DNA of 64,000 bases from Brucella pseudogrignonensis (lineage in GTDB: Bacteria; Pseudomonadota; Alphaproteobacteria; Rhizobiales; Rhizobiaceae), in the NCBI RefSeq assembly GCF_002252525.1, contig NZ_NNRM01000044.1, positions 1-64,000 on the forward strand. Direction: 5' to 3'. The translations under genes were made by a program, and so were the position numbers. Shown here in pieces: positions 1,721 to 60,756 of the stretch. The notes under the pieces were generated by a model that worked only from the letters and a program-made list of their open reading frames with translations, made no database searches and was not told the origin of the DNA. Every line of letters starts with the position of its first letter. Position 1 is the stretch's first letter.

Positions 1721-2635
1721 ATGAGAACATCGGTGATTTTGGCCGGCATGCTGGCCGGCATGGTCTTTTCGGCAACGTCAGGCTTTGCGGCTGATGTGGT
1801 GGTTGGGTCGAAAATCGATACTGAGGGCGGTGTTCTGGGAAACATCATTTCGCAGGTGCTCAAGGCCAATGATATTGCGGTGATCGACAAGATCCAGCTC
1901 GGCGCAACACCGATCGTGCGTGAGGCGATTACTCAGGGGCAGATTGACATCTATCCTGAATATACCGGAAACGCTGCCTTCTTCTTCAACAAGGGCGATC
2001 TGGATGTGTGGAACAAACCCCAGGCAGGCTATGAAGAGGCAAAGAAACTCGACTATGACGCCAACAAGATTGTCTGGCTGACACCGGCCAATGCAAACAA
2101 TACCTGGGCAATCGCGTTGCGCCGCGATGTCGCTGAGCCGAACAAGCTGAAGACGCTGAGCGATTTTGGCAAATATGTCAGTGATGGCGGCAGCGTGAAG
2201 CTTGCGGCCTCTTCGGAATTCGTCAGCTCCGCCACCGCGCTGCCGGCGTTTCAAACCGCCTATCAATTCACCCTCAAACCGGATCAGCTGATTACGCTGT
2301 CGGGCGGCGATACGGCCGCAACGATTGCCGCTGCGGCGCAACAGACATCGGGCGCGAATGCGGCGATGGTCTATGGCACGGATGGCGGCATTGCGCCTGC
2401 TGATCTGATCGTCCTTGAGGACGACAAGGGTGTGCAGCCGGTCTATCTGCCCACACCGATCATTCGGGAGGCCGTCTTGAAAGAGCATCCACAGATTGCT
2501 GATATTCTCAAGCCGGTTTTTGAATCCTTCACGCTGGAAAGCCTGCAGGAACTCAATGGGCGTGTTCAGGTTGGCGGTGAGCCGGCGAGTGATGTCGCCC
2601 GTGATTATCTCACCAAGAACGGCTTCATCAAGTAG
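1721..2635 (+). CDS. osmF: Osmoprotectant ABC transporter substrate-binding protein
   Basis: A 304-residue periplasmic binding protein of the OpuAC/OsmF (YehZ) family, which binds glycine betaine or related quaternary amines. It has a typical signal peptide (residues 1-23, ending SGFAA) and then the family opening VVVGSKIDTEGGVLGNII, followed by QGQIDIYPEYTGNA, the usual ligand-domain motif. The start at 1721 has a GGGAG site about 8 bases upstream. It is the first gene of a four-gene unit with permease, ATPase and second permease, the same gene set as enterobacterial yehZYXW. A stable hairpin follows the gene (2653-2672). The exact ligand is not decided by the sequence. Confidence 0.9.
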   Translation: MRTSVILAGMLAGMVFSATSGFAADVVVGSKIDTEGGVLGNIISQVLKANDIAVIDKIQLGATPIVREAITQGQIDIYPEYTGNAAFFFNKGDLDVWNKPQAGYEEAKKLDYDANKIVWLTPANANNTWAIALRRDVAEPNKLKTLSDFGKYVSDGGSVKLAASSEFVSSATALPAFQTAYQFTLKPDQLITLSGGDTAATIAAAAQQTSGANAAMVYGTDGGIAPADLIVLEDDKGVQPVYLPTPIIREAVLKEHPQIADILKPVFESFTLESLQELNGRVQVGGEPASDVARDYLTKNGFIK

Positions 2636-2652
2636 TCCCGGCCTTTTAGGAT

Positions 2653-2672
2653 CAGGATCCGACAGGATCCTG
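2653..2672 (+). repeat. Intercistronic hairpin after osmF
   Basis: CAGGATCC and GGATCCTG form an 8-bp perfect stem around the loop GACA, 17 bases after the osmF stop. There is no T-tract, so this is more likely an mRNA-stabilising or attenuating hairpin that lets the binding protein be made in excess over the membrane subunits than a full terminator. Confidence 0.5.
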
Positions 2673-2750
2673 CGACGGTAGCCAACGCCTGCGGGAAGAA
2701 CGTCAGGTGTTGGCGCTGCGGATGGCTTTAATGGATGAACAGGATCCACC

Positions 2751-3953
2751 ATGCAGATAACCGCAGGTCGAAACACTGCAGCCGCATTACGTTTCAGCAT
2801 CGATCGACTGGGGGTGGTGATAGCCCTCATCCTTATTCTCTCGCTGATAGTCCAGCCCTTTGCTCTTCTGCGACCCAATCGGGTTGCGGCAACGGCGCCG
2901 GTGCAGCTTGTTGACGCTCTGCCATTCACGCAGGCGGTTTTTCTGATGGGTTTGATTCTGATCACAGTGGCGTTGCTGGTGGTGCGCTCACCGCTCAGGC
3001 TGCGGCTTTCTGCTCTGATTGCAACCCTGATCGCTGTCGCGATAGCGATCGGGCTGAGTGCGGACTATCTGACACCTGCTGGCAATAATTATGCGCGTGT
3101 TTCTCCCGGCGGAACCGTGTGGCTGATCACCTTTGCGCTGGCCCTGGCGATTGGTGACACTCTGGTCCGCATGCGACTGGCGCCGTTGTCGCGGTTGGCG
3201 GCATTGTTTATCTTCGTGGCACTGCTGGGGCTGTTCCTTTATAGTGGTGTGTGGCGGGATGTTTCCATCCTCAAGGAATATGCCTCACGACGGGATGCCT
3301 TTGCCAGTGCGCTTCGGACCCACGCGCTACTGGCAATTGGATCGCTGATCGCAGCCTTTCTCATTGCGACGCCGATTGGCATCCTCATCCATCGCTTCAA
3401 ACGGTTGCGCGACGCCGTCATCTCGTTTTTTAACGTCATCCAGACCATTCCCTCGATGGCCTTGTTCGGCGTGCTGATTGCCCCTTTGGCCTGGGTAGGT
3501 ATCCATATGCCTGGCGCTGCCGCACTGGGTATTGCAGGCATTGGTCCCGCCCCTGCTTTTATTGCTCTGGTTGCCTACGCGCTGCTGCCAATCGTTTCGG
3601 CAACGGTAACCGGACTGGATAACGTGTCGCCTTTGGTGGTGGACGCGGCGCGCGGTGTCGGAATGACCCGCCGGCAACGTCTACTGTCGATTGAACTGCC
3701 CCTGGCCTTTCCGGTCATATTGACCGGGATCCGCGTGGTGCTGGTGCAAAATATCGGCCTTGCCGTCATTGCCGGACTGGTGGGCGGCGGTGGCCTTGGA
3801 ATGTTCGTCTTTCAAGGCATCGCCCAGACGGCAACCGACCTTGTGTTGCTCGGCGCCTTGCCGACTGTCGCCATGGCGTTCATCGCCGCTATCCTGCTTG
3901 ACGCGCTTGTTGAAATCAGCCGGGCGCCGCAGCATAAGGAACAGAGCCCATGA
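2751..3953 (+). CDS. yehY: Osmoprotectant ABC transporter permease (YehY-like)
   Basis: A 400-residue inner-membrane permease. The N-terminal half carries several extra hydrophobic segments (about residues 20-40, 60-80, 85-105, 120-140, 150-170). The C-terminal half is a BPD_transp_1 domain with the coupling region around VVDAARGVGMTRRQRL, which contacts the ATPase. This long form with additional N-terminal helices is the YehY type, unlike the short partner at 4885. Its stop overlaps the ATPase start by 4 bases, so translation is coupled. It forms a heterodimeric channel with the product of 4885-5619. Confidence 0.88.
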   Translation: MQITAGRNTAAALRFSIDRLGVVIALILILSLIVQPFALLRPNRVAATAPVQLVDALPFTQAVFLMGLILITVALLVVRSPLRLRLSALIATLIAVAIAIGLSADYLTPAGNNYARVSPGGTVWLITFALALAIGDTLVRMRLAPLSRLAALFIFVALLGLFLYSGVWRDVSILKEYASRRDAFASALRTHALLAIGSLIAAFLIATPIGILIHRFKRLRDAVISFFNVIQTIPSMALFGVLIAPLAWVGIHMPGAAALGIAGIGPAPAFIALVAYALLPIVSATVTGLDNVSPLVVDAARGVGMTRRQRLLSIELPLAFPVILTGIRVVLVQNIGLAVIAGLVGGGGLGMFVFQGIAQTATDLVLLGALPTVAMAFIAAILLDALVEISRAPQHKEQSP

Positions 3954-4888
3954 TTGAGATTGCCAACCTCACCCGTCTTTATGGCGCACAAAAGGCGGTC
4001 GATGACGTCTCCTTGACCGTCAATGCAGGAGAGATTGTGGTGATTGTCGGCACCTCCGGCTCTGGCAAGACCACATTGATGCGCATGATCAATCGACTGG
4101 TGGAACCCAGCGCTGGCGTGATCAAGATTGACGGCAAGGACAATCGGGAGGTGAGTGCGCATATTCTGCGTCGCGGCATCGGTTATGCCATTCAAGGCCA
4201 TGGCCTGTTCCCACATCGCAGCATTGCCGAGAATATCGCCACTGTGCCGCGCCTGCTTGGCTGGGACCGCGCCCGGATTGCCGCCCGGGTCGACGAGTTG
4301 CTTTCCCTGTTTCATCTCGATCCGGCGGTCTATCGCGATCGGATGCCTCATGAGCTTTCCGGCGGCCAGCAACAGCGGATCGGGGTGGCGCGGGCTTTGG
4401 CCTCCAATCCGGCGATATTGCTGATGGACGAACCCTTTGGGGCGTTGGACCCGATTATCCGTGACAAGGCCCAGGAAGATCTCCTGGCGATCCAGAAACA
4501 TTATCGGACGACGATTGTGCTCGTCACCCACGACATGGAGGAGGCGATCCGTCTTGGGACACGAATTGCGGTGATGGATAAGGGCCGCCTTTTGCAATAT
4601 GCGACACCGCAAGAGATTATCGCGCGCCCCGCAACCCAATTTGTGCATGACCTGCTGGGCGGGGGCAGTGACCGGGTGTTCCGCCTGCTATCGCTTGTCA
4701 CCGTCGATGGTCTTGTCGAGCCTGGTGATGCAAATGGCGATCCAATCGCAAGTGATATGTCTTTGCGCGAGGCGCTGGGGGCAAGCCTTTGGTCAGGCCG
4801 CACCGCCTTGCCCGTGCGCCGCGACGGCGCAATTATCGGCCGTGTGACCCGAGTGGCGATTGAAGACCATGCCCGGAGCATTGCATGA
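3950..4888 (+). CDS. yehX: Osmoprotectant ABC transporter ATP-binding protein (YehX-like)
   Basis: A 312-residue cytosolic ATPase of the OpuCA/YehX family. Visible motifs are the Walker A sequence GTSGSGKTT near residue 32, the signature LSGGQQQRIGVARAL, Walker B ILLMDEPFGALDP and the switch histidine in VLVTHDMEEA. About 75 residues follow the nucleotide-binding core, in the place where OpuCA proteins carry paired CBS modules, so any regulatory region here is short. The gene overlaps both neighbours by 4 bases (ATGA-type junctions), showing a tightly coupled operon. Confidence 0.92.
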   Translation: MIEIANLTRLYGAQKAVDDVSLTVNAGEIVVIVGTSGSGKTTLMRMINRLVEPSAGVIKIDGKDNREVSAHILRRGIGYAIQGHGLFPHRSIAENIATVPRLLGWDRARIAARVDELLSLFHLDPAVYRDRMPHELSGGQQQRIGVARALASNPAILLMDEPFGALDPIIRDKAQEDLLAIQKHYRTTIVLVTHDMEEAIRLGTRIAVMDKGRLLQYATPQEIIARPATQFVHDLLGGGSDRVFRLLSLVTVDGLVEPGDANGDPIASDMSLREALGASLWSGRTALPVRRDGAIIGRVTRVAIEDHARSIA

Positions 4889-5619
4889 AACCGGGTGGGA
4901 TTTTGAAAACTGTACTGCTGATCGTTCTCGTTTGCTTCGTCATGAAGCCGGAATGGTTTGCAGGCGCGCTGGCGCCCTTCACACGAAACGATGCGCCCGC
5001 CATCTATACGCAGAATTCGCTGCTGGCGCTCACAATCAATCATCTGGTTCTGGTGGGGCTTGCGACAATGGTTGCGACCATCATTGCGGTAACGCTTGGC
5101 ATTCTGACTACGCGGCCGGGTGGGCGGGAATTTCTGCCACTTTCGCGCGCCATCGCCAATATCGGCCAGACCTTCCCGCCAGTGGCGGTTCTGGCGATCG
5201 CGGTTCCTATCTTTGGTTTCGGCTCGGTTCCAGCTTTCATTGCGCTGCTGCTTTATGGCCTGCTGCCGATCTTCGAGAATACGCTGACCGGTCTGACTGA
5301 GCTGGAACCCGCAGTGGTGGACGCTGGACGAGGAATGGGGATGACAGACCGGCAATTGCTGATCAATGTTGAATTGCCGCTGGCCCTTCCGGTGATCTTG
5401 TCGGGTGTGCGTCTGGCGGCGATCATCTCTCTGTCGACTGCCACAATCGGCTCGACGGTGGCTGCGAGCACGTTGGGCGAAGTGATTGTGGCGGGTCTCT
5501 TGACTGGCAACACCGCCTTCGTTTTGCAGGGCGGTTTCATTGTCGCGGGCCTTGCCATCCTGATCAATGCGGGTTTCGTGGCGCTGGAAACGCGATTTCG
5601 CCGTAACACTGCCCAATAG
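4885..5619 (+). CDS. yehW: Osmoprotectant ABC transporter permease (YehW-like)
   Basis: A 244-residue permease with an N-terminal hydrophobic segment and one BPD_transp_1 domain of about five more helices. The ATPase-coupling loop is recognisable in AVVDAGRGMGMTDRQLL and closely matches the one in the partner permease at 2751. It is the last gene of the unit; the GC-rich palindrome GCGCTCGAGCGC follows at 5636-5647, without a T-tract. Confidence 0.9.
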   Translation: MKPGGILKTVLLIVLVCFVMKPEWFAGALAPFTRNDAPAIYTQNSLLALTINHLVLVGLATMVATIIAVTLGILTTRPGGREFLPLSRAIANIGQTFPPVAVLAIAVPIFGFGSVPAFIALLLYGLLPIFENTLTGLTELEPAVVDAGRGMGMTDRQLLINVELPLALPVILSGVRLAAIISLSTATIGSTVAASTLGEVIVAGLLTGNTAFVLQGGFIVAGLAILINAGFVALETRFRRNTAQ

Positions 5620-5783
5620 CGTGTAGGAAATATCAGCGCTCGAGCGCCGGCTCCACACGGAACTTCACCTCGTCATGGGATGATCATTGATGGCGCGGTG
5701 GCGACGCGCGCGCCGAATTATTCTGTCAAAACGACCATCCAAGTGGCAGGCAAGCGCGGCCGGCGCTGAGCTCCAGAGACAAG

Positions 5784-5902
5784 AAAGCCCGCTTCGCTGG
5801 GAGGAGGAGTGCGAAGCGGGCTGATCTGGAAAACGCGGCTTTGGGAGGAGGAGTGCCGCGCTTCATGTTCAGTCCCTGGGAGGAGGAGTGAGACTGAACA
5901 TG
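5784..5902 (-). ncRNA. Array of three CCUCCUCCC-loop hairpins ('cuckoo'-type sRNA)
   Basis: Read on the minus strand, three hairpins follow each other, each with the loop core CCTCCTCCC. The stems are 5864-5874 with 5892-5902 (11 bp), 5834-5839 with 5855-5860 (6 bp) and 5787-5796 with 5812-5821 (10 bp, perfect). The stems differ in sequence while the loops are nearly identical, so pairing is conserved by compensation. The last stem is followed by TTTCTT and can act as the terminator. Rhizobial cuckoo RNAs and the Rhodobacter CcsR RNAs share this anti-Shine-Dalgarno loop and tandem layout; they are known or proposed to act on mRNAs under stress. I see no clear promoter, so the 5' end is uncertain. 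No protein is encoded between 5620 and 6421. Confidence 0.75.
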
Positions 5903-5980
5903 TTCTAACTACGCATTTTGGCGGGGTCTCACAACATGCAAAAATGCATGGCTGTTATGCGCAGGATCTGGGAATGCAAA

Positions 5981-6018
5981 ACCGCCCGGCAGCGGCAAAC
6001 GCGCCCAGGCGGTCTTTT
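5981..6018. terminator. Possible bidirectional terminator hairpin
   Basis: ACCGCC (5981-5986) pairs with GGCGGT (6008-6013). Four A bases precede and CTTTT follows, so either strand would give a GC stem followed by U residues. It lies upstream of the minus-strand hairpin RNA array and may insulate it. The remaining DNA to 6421 shows no gene that I can support. Confidence 0.45.
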
Positions 6019-6421
6019 CCTCCCAGAGGCCGGTCTTCTATCAGCAATTACTCAGTAGAGCAACAAGTATCCCGAAGTACATAATCCCACTATTTTAGTG
6101 TGATCATAACAATAGTCCGGGTGCCGAAGTCGTTTGGAAGAGAAAATCGATCGTCCCGTATCGCGGGTGTGGGCGGGGGGCTTGGGCGCGCGATACGGGG
6201 AGCTTCCTGCGAACAGGGTGCAAGCCAAAGGTAAGGCTATTTGAGAGAAAGCGAAATGACAGATTGTTGCGGTTGCAAATCGTAAGTGCAGCAACCTAGG
6301 AAGAACGAGCGACGGCTTCAGCCCGCCCAGGCAAGCCAACACCACAGATCGCAAAGGTTTTGCAGGTTCTACAAACGCTCGGTTGTTCGATCCATATTTT
6401 TGCTCCTGGGGAACGGAGGAA

Positions 6422-6739
6422 ATGACGGTAAGGGTTCTCAATGTCTGGTGGGATGGTCGCATCGTCGGGCTATTCACCCAGGATAGGCACGGTGATATCG
6501 GCTTTGCCTACGCCGGAGCTTGGTTTGATGACGAAAAGGCGCTTCCGCTGTCTGCCTCCTTCCCAAAGCGTCCGGAACGGCTTTCCCGTCAAGAATGCCG
6601 ACCATTTTTCGGCGGCCTGTTGCCCGAGGAAAGACAGCGCCCGAAGATAGAAATGGTGGGCGAGGATGAGCTGCCATTGGGGCGTGATTTTTGCGCGATG
6701 TCAATCGTGCAGCCTGGCAGGCACGCGTCTGGGGATTAA
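6422..6739 (+). pseudogene. N-terminal remnant of a HipA-type kinase gene
   Basis: The frame from the ATG at 6422 encodes about 105 residues resembling the N-terminal subdomain of HipA serine/threonine kinases: VLNVWWDGRIVGLFTQD, then FGGLLPEE. HipA proteins are usually about 400-450 residues and the kinase domain with its catalytic Asp is absent here; the frame ends one base before the tail of the oppositely oriented monooxygenase gene. No hipB-like antitoxin gene is visible upstream. This is therefore a truncated, probably inactive toxin remnant. A functional short N-terminal protein is possible but less likely. Confidence 0.6.
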
Positions 6740-59052: not shown

Positions 59053-60756
59053 TTAGAACAGGAAGTAACGCTGCGCCATCGGCAGGACGTCGGCCGGTTC
59101 GCAGCTGATGAGTTCCCCGTCCACCCGCACCTGATAGTTTTGCGGATCGACCTCCAGTTTTGGCGTCAGGCCATTATGGATCATATCCTTCTTGCGGATT
59201 GTCCTTATTCCCTTGACCGCGACCAGCTGCTTTTGCAGCTTGAGCTTTTCGCCAATCCCGTCATTGAGCGCCGCCTGCGACACGAAGGTAACGCCGGTCG
59301 AACCGATGGCCCGGCCCATGATCCCATACATTGGCCGGTAGTGAACCGGCTGCGGGGTTGAGATGGAGGCATTGGGATCGCCCATTGGTGCCATTGCAAT
59401 CATCCCGCCCAGCATGACCAGGCTTGGTTTCACCCCGAAGAATTCGGGCTTCCACAAGACGAGGTCGGCTCTTTTTCCGACCGCCACGGAACCGATTTCA
59501 TGGGCGAAGCCATGGGTGATGGCCGGGTTGATGGTGTATTTCGCGATATAGCGCTTGGCGCGAAAATTGTCGTTGCGGCTGCTGTCGGGATTGAGCGGGC
59601 CGCGCTGGACCTTCATTTTATGGGCGGTCTGCCAGCAGCGCAGCGTGGTTTCGCCGATCCGGCCCATGGCCTGGGAATCCGATGACATCATCGAGAAGAC
59701 ACCGAGATCATGGAGGATATCCTCGGCGGCGATGGTCTCGCGTCTGATCCGGGATTCCGCGAAGGCCACATCCTCGGGAATCTTGGGACTGAGGTGATGG
59801 CAGACCATCAGCATGTCGAGATGTTCGTCAACCGTATTGATCGTATAGGGCCGGGTTGGATTGGTGGAGGAGGGTAGAATGTTCTCTTCTCCCGCCGCTG
59901 TAATGATGTCTGGGGCATGACCGCCACCGGCGCCTTCGGTATGAAAGCTATGGATGGTGCGGCCTTTCATGGCAGCGAATGTGTCCTTGACAAAGCCGCT
60001 CTCATTGAGAGTATCGCTATGCAGGGCGACCTGAATATCTTCTTCGTCGGCGACGCTCAGACAGGTGTCGATCGCCGCAGGTGTGGTCCCCCAGTCCTCA
60101 TGCAGCTTCAGACCAACTGCCCCGGCCCGGATCTGTTCGCGCAAGGGTTCGGGCATGCTCGCATTGCCTTTGCCGAGCAGGCCGACATTGATGGGCAGCG
60201 CTTCAATTGCCTCAAGCATGCGGTGGATCGCCCAGGGGCCGGCGGTAACGGTGGTGGCCAGTGTTCCCACAGTGGGACCGGCACCACCACCCACCAGAGT
60301 GGTGGTGCCGCTGGCCAGCGCCTCCTCTGCCTGTTGCGGGGCGATGAAATGAATATGGGTGTCGATGGCACCGGCGGTAAGGATCTTGCCTTCGCCGGCA
60401 ATCACATCGGTGCCAGGACCGATCACAATATCAACACCGGGCTGAATGTCGGGATTGCCGGCCTTGCCGATACCGGTAATGCGGCCGCTTTTGATCCCCA
60501 CATCGGCCTTGATGATCCCCCAATGATCCAGAATGATCACATTGGTAATGACCAGATCGGCGGTTTCGGCGGCCGGACGTTGCCCCTGGCCCATCCCGTC
60601 ACGGATGACCTTGCCGCCACCAAATGTGACTTCCTCGCCATAGATGCAACGGTCTTCCTCGATTTCGATGATCAGTTCGGTATCCGCCAGGCGCAGTCGA
60701 TCGCCGATGGTGGGACCGTAAAGTTCGGCATAGGCCTGTCTGGAAATACTTCCCAT
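59053..60756 (-). CDS. ureC: Urease alpha subunit
   Basis: The 567-residue catalytic subunit. The nickel ligands and catalytic residues fall at the same numbers as in Klebsiella urease: H134 and H136 in DTHIHFIAP, the carbamylated K217 and H219 in [10 protein letters not shown]246 in [11 protein letters not shown]272 in [16 protein letters not shown]319 and H320 in VCHHLSP, and D360 in [12 protein letters not shown]. It hydrolyses urea to ammonia and carbamate in the cytoplasm. It is in a unit with ureD, ureA and ureB upstream (9-base gaps between A, B and C) and the urea channel downstream. Confidence 0.97.

What the first reader, a model, noticed from the sequence alone, without database searches (positions are those of the whole stretch)
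5784..5902. Three-hairpin CCUCCUCCC-loop RNA locus
Seen directly: three successive minus-strand hairpins with the same loop core CCTCCTCCC and different, individually paired stems, the last with a terminator-like T-run. Known: cuckoo RNAs of Rhizobiales and CcsR RNAs of Rhodobacter have this loop and layout and are linked to stress and to base-pairing with GGAGG-rich ribosome sites. Inference: a single transcript or processed units could sequester many mRNAs, since strong GGAGG sites occur in many genes of this window.
Basis: partly seen in the sequence, partly recalled or inferred. Interest (0 to 1): 0.75.

Follow-up and report, generated by a model that had tools for sequence, protein, structure and literature searches.

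The report
Anti-ribosome-site RNA with SD-mimic neighbour
The three hairpins are a known kind of bacterial small RNA (alpha-r14/NfeR1, "cuckoo") thought to block ribosome-binding sites; beside this copy sits a short, conserved, apparently undescribed RNA gene that carries a ribosome-site look-alike and may act as a decoy for it.

Summary
Window 5782-5906 (-) matches Rfam RF02344 (ar14) at 85.7 bits (cut-off 58.8); all three CCUCCUCCC motifs sit in hairpin loops, which 0 of 1000 loop-preserving shuffles reproduced. It is the known alpha-r14/NfeR1 "cuckoo" kind, not CcsR (24.2 bits, cut-off 65.3). The genome is Brucella sensu lato and holds seven copies: one stand-alone, three behind DUF1127 genes, and three, this one included, in a two-RNA cassette.

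New here: the cassette's second element, about 6031-5978 (-), is a predicted 54-60-nt transcription unit: promoter-like hexamers, a Shine-Dalgarno-like seed, then a covarying terminator. Genus-wide, 56 of 57 strong model matches lie 75-232 nt upstream of a cuckoo RNA, same strand; the orphan is an orthologous site where the cuckoo RNA is gone but the companion remains. Among 199 family genomes, strong matches occurred only in the four of this genus. The seed can pair with the cuckoo loops, so a cis-linked sponge is plausible, with precedent in Caulobacter CrfA. Against it: one of three subfamilies pairs poorly, some relatives have the cuckoo RNA without companion, any ribosome site would pair as well, and there are no expression or binding data.

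The parts
5782..5906 (-). alpha-r14 / NfeR1-type sRNA with three anti-SD hairpins
   Evidence: RF02344 85.7 bits, E 4.5e-14, cut-off 58.8, model positions 1-123
5864..5902 (-). hairpin 1 (loop motif at 5878-5886)
   Evidence: fold of 5782-5908; motif
5831..5863 (-). hairpin 2 (loop motif at 5843-5851)
   Evidence: fold; motif
5786..5822 (-). hairpin 3, terminator-like, short interrupted T-run (loop motif at 5799-5807)
   Evidence: fold; in a 20-sequence alignment each of the 9 predicted pairs of the last hairpin has changes on both sides
5905..5934 (-). putative cuckoo promoter (TTGTGA 5929-5934; GTAGTTAG 5905-5912), by alignment to the paralogues' TTGTAA ... CTATTT
   Evidence: conserved columns among 10 loci; coordinates; inferred, the sigma-70 scan of 5600-6300 found none
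5945..5959 (-). LysR-type (VtlR/LsrB-like) box CATAACAGCCATGCA, 12 of 15 to the VtlR motif printed in PMC12595884
   Evidence: best match starts 53-58 nt before the model's 5' end in 4 of 4 own copies with their own promoter (3 to 5 mismatches); 4 sites in the window at 3 mismatches or fewer, 5.99 expected, so the letters alone are not significant
5978..6031 (-). companion RNA (candidate sponge): SD-like seed TGGGAGGA at 6018-6025, terminator hairpin 5978-6013, no start codon found after the seed
   Evidence: cassette conservation, model R1 65.0 bits at 5972-6044, fold z -2.56 with 3 of 200 shuffles as stable, start codons, coordinates; 5' end inferred
6038..6063 (-). putative companion promoter hexamers (TTGCTC 6058-6063; TGATAG 6038-6043)
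   Evidence: position shared with paralogues; inferred
6083..6102 (-). imperfect dyad before the companion promoter (in relatives ATAATCATAC-N6-GTATGATTAT)
   Evidence: 8 loci of this subfamily printed; regulator unknown

Best explanation
Window 5782-5906 (-) encodes one of seven alpha-r14 (NfeR1/cuckoo) small RNAs of this Brucella sensu lato genome. It is most likely transcribed from its own promoter under a VtlR/LsrB-type LysR regulator. Each of its three hairpins presents CCUCCUCCC in the loop; the loops pair with GGAGG-type ribosome-binding sites of many mRNAs, probably chiefly transporter and metabolic genes, and block translation start. Shown here: sequence, structure, family membership, copy number, box position. 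Inferred from S. meliloti NfeR1: LysR activation, target silencing, redundancy of the loops. In addition this copy is part of a two-RNA cassette: a conserved 54-60-nt companion transcription unit lies just upstream, carries an SD-like seed, and is proposed, as inference only, to titrate the cuckoo loops. The confidence given is for the first part; the companion's role is scored under the rivals.
For: RF02344 over the cut-off; 7 copies over the cut-off in the own genome; each of the 35 genus genomes searched, own included, has 3-8 matches at E <= 0.001; 116 of 121 family genomes at E <= 0.001, 108 of 121 over the cut-off. Loops held by paired stems; in 101 distinct triple-TCCTCCC loci among those held, the motif lies in a hairpin loop in 101, 98 and 101 for the three hairpins. 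LysR-type box at the same offset in 4 of 4 own copies with their own promoter and 249-316 nt upstream, before the DUF1127 gene, in the other three; 42 of 52 distinct companion-bearing loci have it with 4 mismatches or fewer, 15 of 50 others (no shuffle control for this tally). S. meliloti NfeR1: same motif, LsrB box at -72 to -57, silencing lost when the three motifs are mutated (PMC10746234, passages); SMc03121 is silenced by both NfeR1 and AbcR1/2 (PMC8844928, passages).
Against: No transcript data; only one of six S. meliloti NfeR1 copies was detected by Northern blot (PMC7143759, passage). The box letters alone are not rarer than chance in the window; own copies C8 and C48 match with 5 mismatches, equalled by 233 and 179 of 500 shuffles, and C36 with 4, equalled by 44 of 500. 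The last hairpin's T-run is short. No sigma-70 promoter was found by scan in 5600-6300. RNAalifold on 20 rows recovered only the last hairpin.
Confidence: 0.87

Rival explanations
1. The companion is a sponge (decoy) RNA: a separately promoted 54-60-nt transcript whose GGAGGA-type seed pairs with CCUCCUCCC loops of the cuckoo RNAs and relieves ribosome-site blocking.
For: 56 of 57 genus matches with E <= 2e-5 lie 75-232 nt upstream of cuckoo loops, same strand (matches; neighbours; window); own genome 3 of 3. Of 28 distinct elements picked by dyad plus terminator without asking for a seed, 28 carry ACTTGGAGGAG (drawn from loci already held, most of them fetched because of a cuckoo RNA or model R1). 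Pairing corrected for opening the companion: window -10.1 kcal/mol, 5 of 200 shuffles as strong; four relatives -8.4, -12.9, -8.5 and -6.3, with 0, 0, 2 and 9 of 200. G032 kept the companion at an orthologous site where the cuckoo is missing. Precedent: CrfA sponges four anti-SD alpha-r8 sRNAs in Caulobacter (PMC12559287: abstract, passages, part 1 of the Discussion).
Against: Any SD pairs with these loops, so complementarity is not specific. Subfamily B3 (13 of 41 distinct 5' parts) has only 4-7 nt of perfect complement, and 11 of those 13 are not better than shuffles at 0.05; so are 3 of the other 28. RNAcofold found no binding (0.0 to -0.9 kcal/mol per hairpin, shuffled seeds as strong or stronger in 300 of 300 for both sequences tried), though that program cannot pair a closed hairpin loop with another strand. 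A start codon lies near the seed in 4 of 41 or, with a wider reach, 9 of 41, 10 in all, so some copies could be translated; the window copy is not among them. G004, G028 and G033 have a cuckoo RNA of this type without companion, and G026 has no companion match either.
Confidence: 0.36
2. The companion is the 5' part of one long precursor: a terminator/attenuator that limits read-through into the cuckoo RNA, with the SD-like stretch as a regulatory site, possibly bound by cuckoo loops themselves.
For: Same strand, short and steady distance, terminator just upstream.
Against: A LysR-type box and promoter-like hexamers for the cuckoo lie between terminator and cuckoo, and such a box also precedes cuckoo loci without companion. 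The orphan in G032 has no cuckoo left to attenuate.
Confidence: 0.2
3. The companion is an independent sRNA, a 30S decoy or, in some copies, a tiny mRNA, whose seed acts on something other than the cuckoo RNAs; the linkage only reflects duplication as one cassette.
For: The seed would pair with any CCUCC stretch; the cassette is duplicated as a unit; 10 of 41 distinct copies have a start codon near the seed.
Against: No unlinked strong match was found in 35 genomes except the one site without a cuckoo.
Confidence: 0.32
4. The hairpin locus is a CcsR locus with a DUF1127 (CcaF1-like) gene.
For: Same loop motif; three other own copies do follow DUF1127 genes.
Against: CcsR1 24.2 bits, cut-off 65.3; no DUF1127 ORF before the window copy.
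Confidence: 0.03

Closest known systems
alpha-r14 / NfeR1 (Rfam RF02344; S. meliloti NfeR1 = SmelC397, and the similar SmelA075)
   Same: Three hairpins with CCUCCUCCC loops, full-length model match, several copies per genome, LysR-type box upstream
   Different: Seven copies in three arrangements here; this copy has a companion unit that was not found strongly outside the genus in the genomes searched. The NtrC site of PnfeR1 was not tested here and is reported as not evident in Brucella (PMC10746234, passage)
CcsR1-4 / CcaF1 of Rhodobacter sphaeroides (RF02791)
   Same: Loop motif; a DUF1127-plus-cuckoo arrangement occurs at three other loci of this genome
   Different: Window copy fails the covariance cut-off and has no DUF1127 gene in front
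CrfA sponge of Caulobacter (targets anti-SD sRNAs SisA-D, alpha-r8)
   Same: Would-be logic: a purine-rich RNA neutralising a multi-copy anti-SD sRNA family
   Different: CrfA pairs through a G/A-rich stem-loop and was found with Hfq; here the seed is near the inferred 5' end of a shorter RNA encoded beside its would-be target, and there is no experiment. CrfA and the companion were not compared by sequence
QrrX sponge of Vibrio cholerae
   Same: One sponge against a family of sibling sRNAs; a LysR-type regulator takes part in that system
   Different: qrrX lies next to its LysR regulator gene (PMC9732341, passages); here the LysR-type box belongs to the sRNA, not to the supposed sponge

Membership tests
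alpha-r14 (RF02344) | Covariance score over the curated cut-off (58.8) | tested here: met
   85.7 bits, positions 1-123
alpha-r14 (RF02344) | Three hairpins, each with CCUCCUCCC unpaired in the loop, stems variable | tested here: met
alpha-r14 (RF02344) | Several copies per Rhizobiales genome | tested here: met
   7 over the cut-off in the own genome; 108 of 121 family genomes have at least one over the cut-off
NfeR1 (S. meliloti) | LsrB-type LTTR box upstream of the core promoter | tested here: inconclusive
   Positionally steady box but letters not rarer than chance in the window; no binding test
NfeR1 (S. meliloti) | NtrC site upstream of the LsrB box | not tested
   reported as not evident in Brucella (PMC10746234, passage)
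NfeR1 (S. meliloti) | Silences mRNAs by pairing at the ribosome site | not testable with these tools
   only complementarity was counted
CcsR (RF02791) | Covariance score over the cut-off (65.3) | tested here: not met
   24.2 bits
CcsR / CIN1 arrangement | DUF1127 gene in front | tested here: not met
   none before the window copy; present before copies C14, C42:48814 and C36
Sponge sRNA (CrfA/QrrX type), companion element | Conserved complementarity to the sRNA's seed | tested here: inconclusive
   7-11 nt in the 28 distinct copies of B1/B2, 4-7 nt in the 13 of B3
Sponge sRNA, companion element | Stand-alone transcript | tested here: inconclusive
   dyad, hexamers, seed and terminator conserved; no RNA data
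Sponge sRNA, companion element | Lowers level or activity of the sRNA | not testable with these tools
   needs experiment
Any Rfam family, companion element | Match in Rfam 15 | tested here: not met
   none of the 6 matches with E up to 5 in 5650-6450 overlaps the companion

The most novel reading that the evidence does not exclude
Brucella sensu lato has evolved a dedicated, genus-specific sponge RNA encoded directly in front of the anti-SD sRNA it titrates: a 54-60-nt Shine-Dalgarno mimic with its own regulator site, duplicated as one cassette with the cuckoo RNA, able to act in trans on the whole cuckoo family (seven copies here) and kept even where its neighbouring cuckoo RNA has been deleted.
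Probability: 0.34. Interest if true: 0.72.

Novelty: new variant of a known kind. Interest (0 to 1): 0.45.

Why it matters
The hairpin RNA alone is a further member of a studied family. The companion suggests a testable answer to a question about these RNAs: how a cell with several near-redundant RNAs, all carrying the same generic anti-ribosome-site loop, keeps them from curbing translation broadly. A separately controlled SD-mimic made next to the cuckoo gene would be an economical off-switch.

Tried and rejected
CcsR membership: rejected on score and context. Chance arrangement of loops: rejected. Synteny with the osmoprotectant transporter: of 80 loci fetched with the neighbouring permease (6 kb flanks wanted; some cut by contig ends), only L047 and L079 hold a group of two or more exact CCTCCTCCC, both about 3.5 kb from the permease, and none of L040-L045 (Brucella, Falsochrobactrum) does; so the neighbours do not explain the copy.

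Companion as coding: the short ORF readable in the window is not kept in relatives. Start codons near the seed: 4 of 41 distinct copies at the first spacing tried, 9 of 41 with a wider reach, 10 in all, four of them ATG in subfamily B3; the window copy has none. So coding is not excluded for every copy. Companion on the other strand: T-run and hexamers lie on the cuckoo's strand; the scan did list one weak terminator-like site on the + strand at 6010-6032. The conservation profile was circular (rows picked by the seed) and replaced. RNAcofold gave no binding; kept as a negative result. RNAalifold on 20 alpha-r14 rows found only the last hairpin.

Companion wider afield: 13 of 199 family genomes had a match at E <= 0.01; the strong ones were the 4 of this genus, the other 9 had E 2.3e-4 to 0.0099 and were not followed up; stricter filters applied. 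Of 30 alpha-r14 loci from other genera, 3 had an SD-like hexamer within 330 nt upstream (L195, L197, L222), not examined further. In the genus search 5 of 62 matches (E 1e-4 to 0.009) were dropped: they lack the seed and look like other terminators, though two of them (G018, G009) have a single TCCTCC about 220 nt downstream. No plasmid match for one cassette.

Literature: no cuckoo or NfeR1 sponge was seen in the listings (one search showed 12 of 1,113 papers, 20 of 28, 15 of 16). In PMC8844928 (passages) a sponge is proposed for AbcR1/2; in PMC7143759 (passages) the one sponge mention is a reference on GcvB. The cuckoo-family paper PMC4615179 is not held. Published Brucella sRNA lists (PMC9751625, PMC12772402; passages) were not compared with the companion.

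Full report
What is there. On the minus strand at 5782-5906 lie three hairpins whose loops each hold CCUCCUCCC. Rfam RF02344 (ar14) matches over its full length at 85.7 bits, cut-off 58.8, E 4.5e-14. Three such loops inside paired stems are far beyond chance: 0 of 1000 loop-preserving shuffles; 0 of 200 dinucleotide shuffles fold as well (z -9.06).

Organism and copies. The nearest named relatives of the neighbouring permease are Brucella pituitosa (86%), B. rhizosphaerae (85%) and B. grignonensis (83%), so the genome (5.53 Mb, 53 contigs) is taken to be Brucella sensu lato, Ochrobactrum group; the species was not determined. It has seven ar14 RNAs over the cut-off. Their upstream regions are of three kinds: one stand-alone copy (C8); three that follow a 48-residue DUF1127 ORF (C14, C42:48814, C36; Pfam PF06568), the arrangement described for CcaF1-CcsR in Rhodobacter and called CIN1 (PMC10253847, passages); and three with a companion element (C38 = window, C48, C42:196839).

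Known family. PMC3927594 (passages) describes S. meliloti SmelA075/SmelA099 with three or four hairpins and CCUCCUCCC as an anti-Shine-Dalgarno motif, multi-copy, presumed to block ribosome sites. PMC10746234 (passages) describes alpha-r14: NfeR1 is activated by LsrB, repressed by NtrC, said to be Hfq-independent, and silences ntrB through three redundant motifs. PMC7143759 (passages) adds that NfeR1 is SmelC397, has six copies of which one was detected by Northern blot, and is needed for survival in hypersaline medium. The cuckoo paper (PMC4615179) is not held. Reach: 116 of 121 family genomes at E <= 0.001; in 190 genomes drawn across the class 5, own included, at E <= 1e-5, and only the own genome over the cut-off (stricter filters).

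Control of this copy. PMC12595884 (passages) prints the VtlR-binding motif CAATGCAGCCATGCA and reports that VtlR activates AbcR2 and three DUF1127 genes in B. melitensis. That VtlR is the counterpart of LsrB is my own knowledge. The window has CATAACAGCCATGCA at 5945-5959 (-), 12 of 15. Best matches start 53-58 nt before the ar14 model in the four own copies with their own promoter, and 249-316 nt before it, ahead of the DUF1127 gene, in the other three. The letters alone are weak evidence: 4 such sites in the window, 5.99 expected; C8 and C48 match with 5 mismatches, as good as 233 and 179 of 500 shuffles, and C36 with 4 (44 of 500). Steady position is the argument. It suggests, no more, that the whole cuckoo complement answers to one regulator.

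The companion. Alignment of paralogues and orthologues showed that conservation continues upstream of the cuckoo promoter: an SD-like motif (TGGGAGGA in the window, 6018-6025; GGAGGAGG in others), then a terminator hairpin (5978-6013 in the window), preceded by hexamers and a dyad. Twenty-seven distinct copies, chosen from cuckoo loci, gave a 12-pair helix with 96.9% of cells paired; 11 cells in two pairs are changed on both sides (shuffled mean 3.8, 0 of 500 as high), while the number of such pairs and of further pair types is no higher than in shuffles (430 and 406 of 500), and one pair is broken in 10 of 27. A covariance model (R1) run over whole genomes found the element in 31 of 35 genus genomes; the own genome has exactly three matches, all in front of cuckoo copies. 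Of 57 matches with E <= 2e-5, 56 have cuckoo loops 75-232 nt downstream on the same strand (window); two of these 56 show fewer than three TCCTCC in one group by the simple scan (G030, G012). The model was trained on cuckoo-linked copies, so the claim is limited to their homologues.

Conservation of the seed. In subfamily B2, picking elements by dyad plus terminator only, 28 of 28 distinct sequences carry ACTTGGAGGAG while neighbouring letters vary; the pool was the loci already held. In the window's subfamily B1 all 8 loci printed carry GGGAGGA or GGGGAGGA. In B3 the motif drifts (GGAGGAG, GAGGGAG, GGCGGAG, GGCGACG), perfect complementarity to the loop falls to 4-7 nt, and 11 of 13 distinct copies pair no better than shuffles at 0.05, against 3 of 28 in the others.

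A natural deletion. In G032 the cassette site, recognisable by downstream sequence shared with L170, L166, L160 and L168, lacks the cuckoo RNA and most of its promoter, while dyad, hexamers, seed and terminator of the companion remain. Conversely G004, G028 and G033 have a cuckoo RNA of this type with a LysR-like box (clear in G004 and G033, poor in G028) and no companion. Each can exist without the other; the companion looks like a gain within the genus, or a loss in those lines.

Mechanism. Most likely: VtlR/LsrB-type activation, then loop-to-ribosome-site pairing of the cuckoo RNA (supported by the S. meliloti work, inferred here). In the window 13 of 49 crude gene calls have at least 6 nt complementary to the loop before a possible start, control 1 of 49. 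For the companion my leading reading is a sponge: seed-loop pairing corrected for opening the companion is -10.1 kcal/mol in the window (5 of 200 shuffles as strong) and -6.3 to -12.9 in four relatives (0 to 9 of 200). Against it: ordinary ribosome sites pair as well, B3 pairs poorly, RNAcofold gives nothing, 10 of 41 distinct copies have a start codon near the seed, and there is no RNA evidence.

Precedent and novelty. CrfA in Caulobacter sponges four anti-SD sRNAs of another family (PMC12559287; abstract, passages, Discussion part 1), and QrrX sponges the Qrr siblings in Vibrio (PMC9732341, passages). No cuckoo or NfeR1 sponge was seen in the listings, and no Rfam match overlaps the companion. 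The hairpin RNA is thus a further member of a known family; the two-RNA cassette is a new variant if the companion is expressed.

Noticed in passing
window 60324-60604 (+): Rfam RF02514 (5_ureB_sRNA) over its cut-off (79.7 bits, cut-off 40), antisense to a urease alpha-subunit gene (59056-60756 -). The match may simply reflect conserved urease coding sequence rather than a true antisense RNA.
   Followed up: partly
L003 (own contig C14), upstream of the match at 1501-1621: This DUF1127-linked copy has a fourth CCTCCTCCC between short inverted arms, between the DUF1127 stop codon and the three-hairpin unit.
   Followed up: no
window 6155-6199: Inverted repeat CCCGTATCGCGC ... GCGATACGGG upstream of the cassette; one similar arm precedes the C48 cassette, and the only other match in the own genome is at the very end of contig C41.
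   Followed up: partly
G018, G023, G009, G029, G001, G012, G006, G010 (e.g. L150, L152-L157): Divergent pairs of cassettes, companions about 350-380 bp apart, each upstream of its own cuckoo RNA and of different subfamilies (B2 and B3).
   Followed up: partly
window 1721-5619 (+): Osmoprotectant-type ABC transporter operon (OpuAC binding protein, two permeases, ATPase) convergent with the cuckoo RNA; none of its four start regions is among the 13 with 6 or more complementary nt.
   Followed up: partly
upstream of B2 companions, e.g. L170, L166, L160: Conserved 18-bp dyad TTTCAGTAATTTCTGAAA about 22 nt before the -35-like hexamer; regulator unknown and different from the dyad of the window's subfamily.
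   Followed up: no
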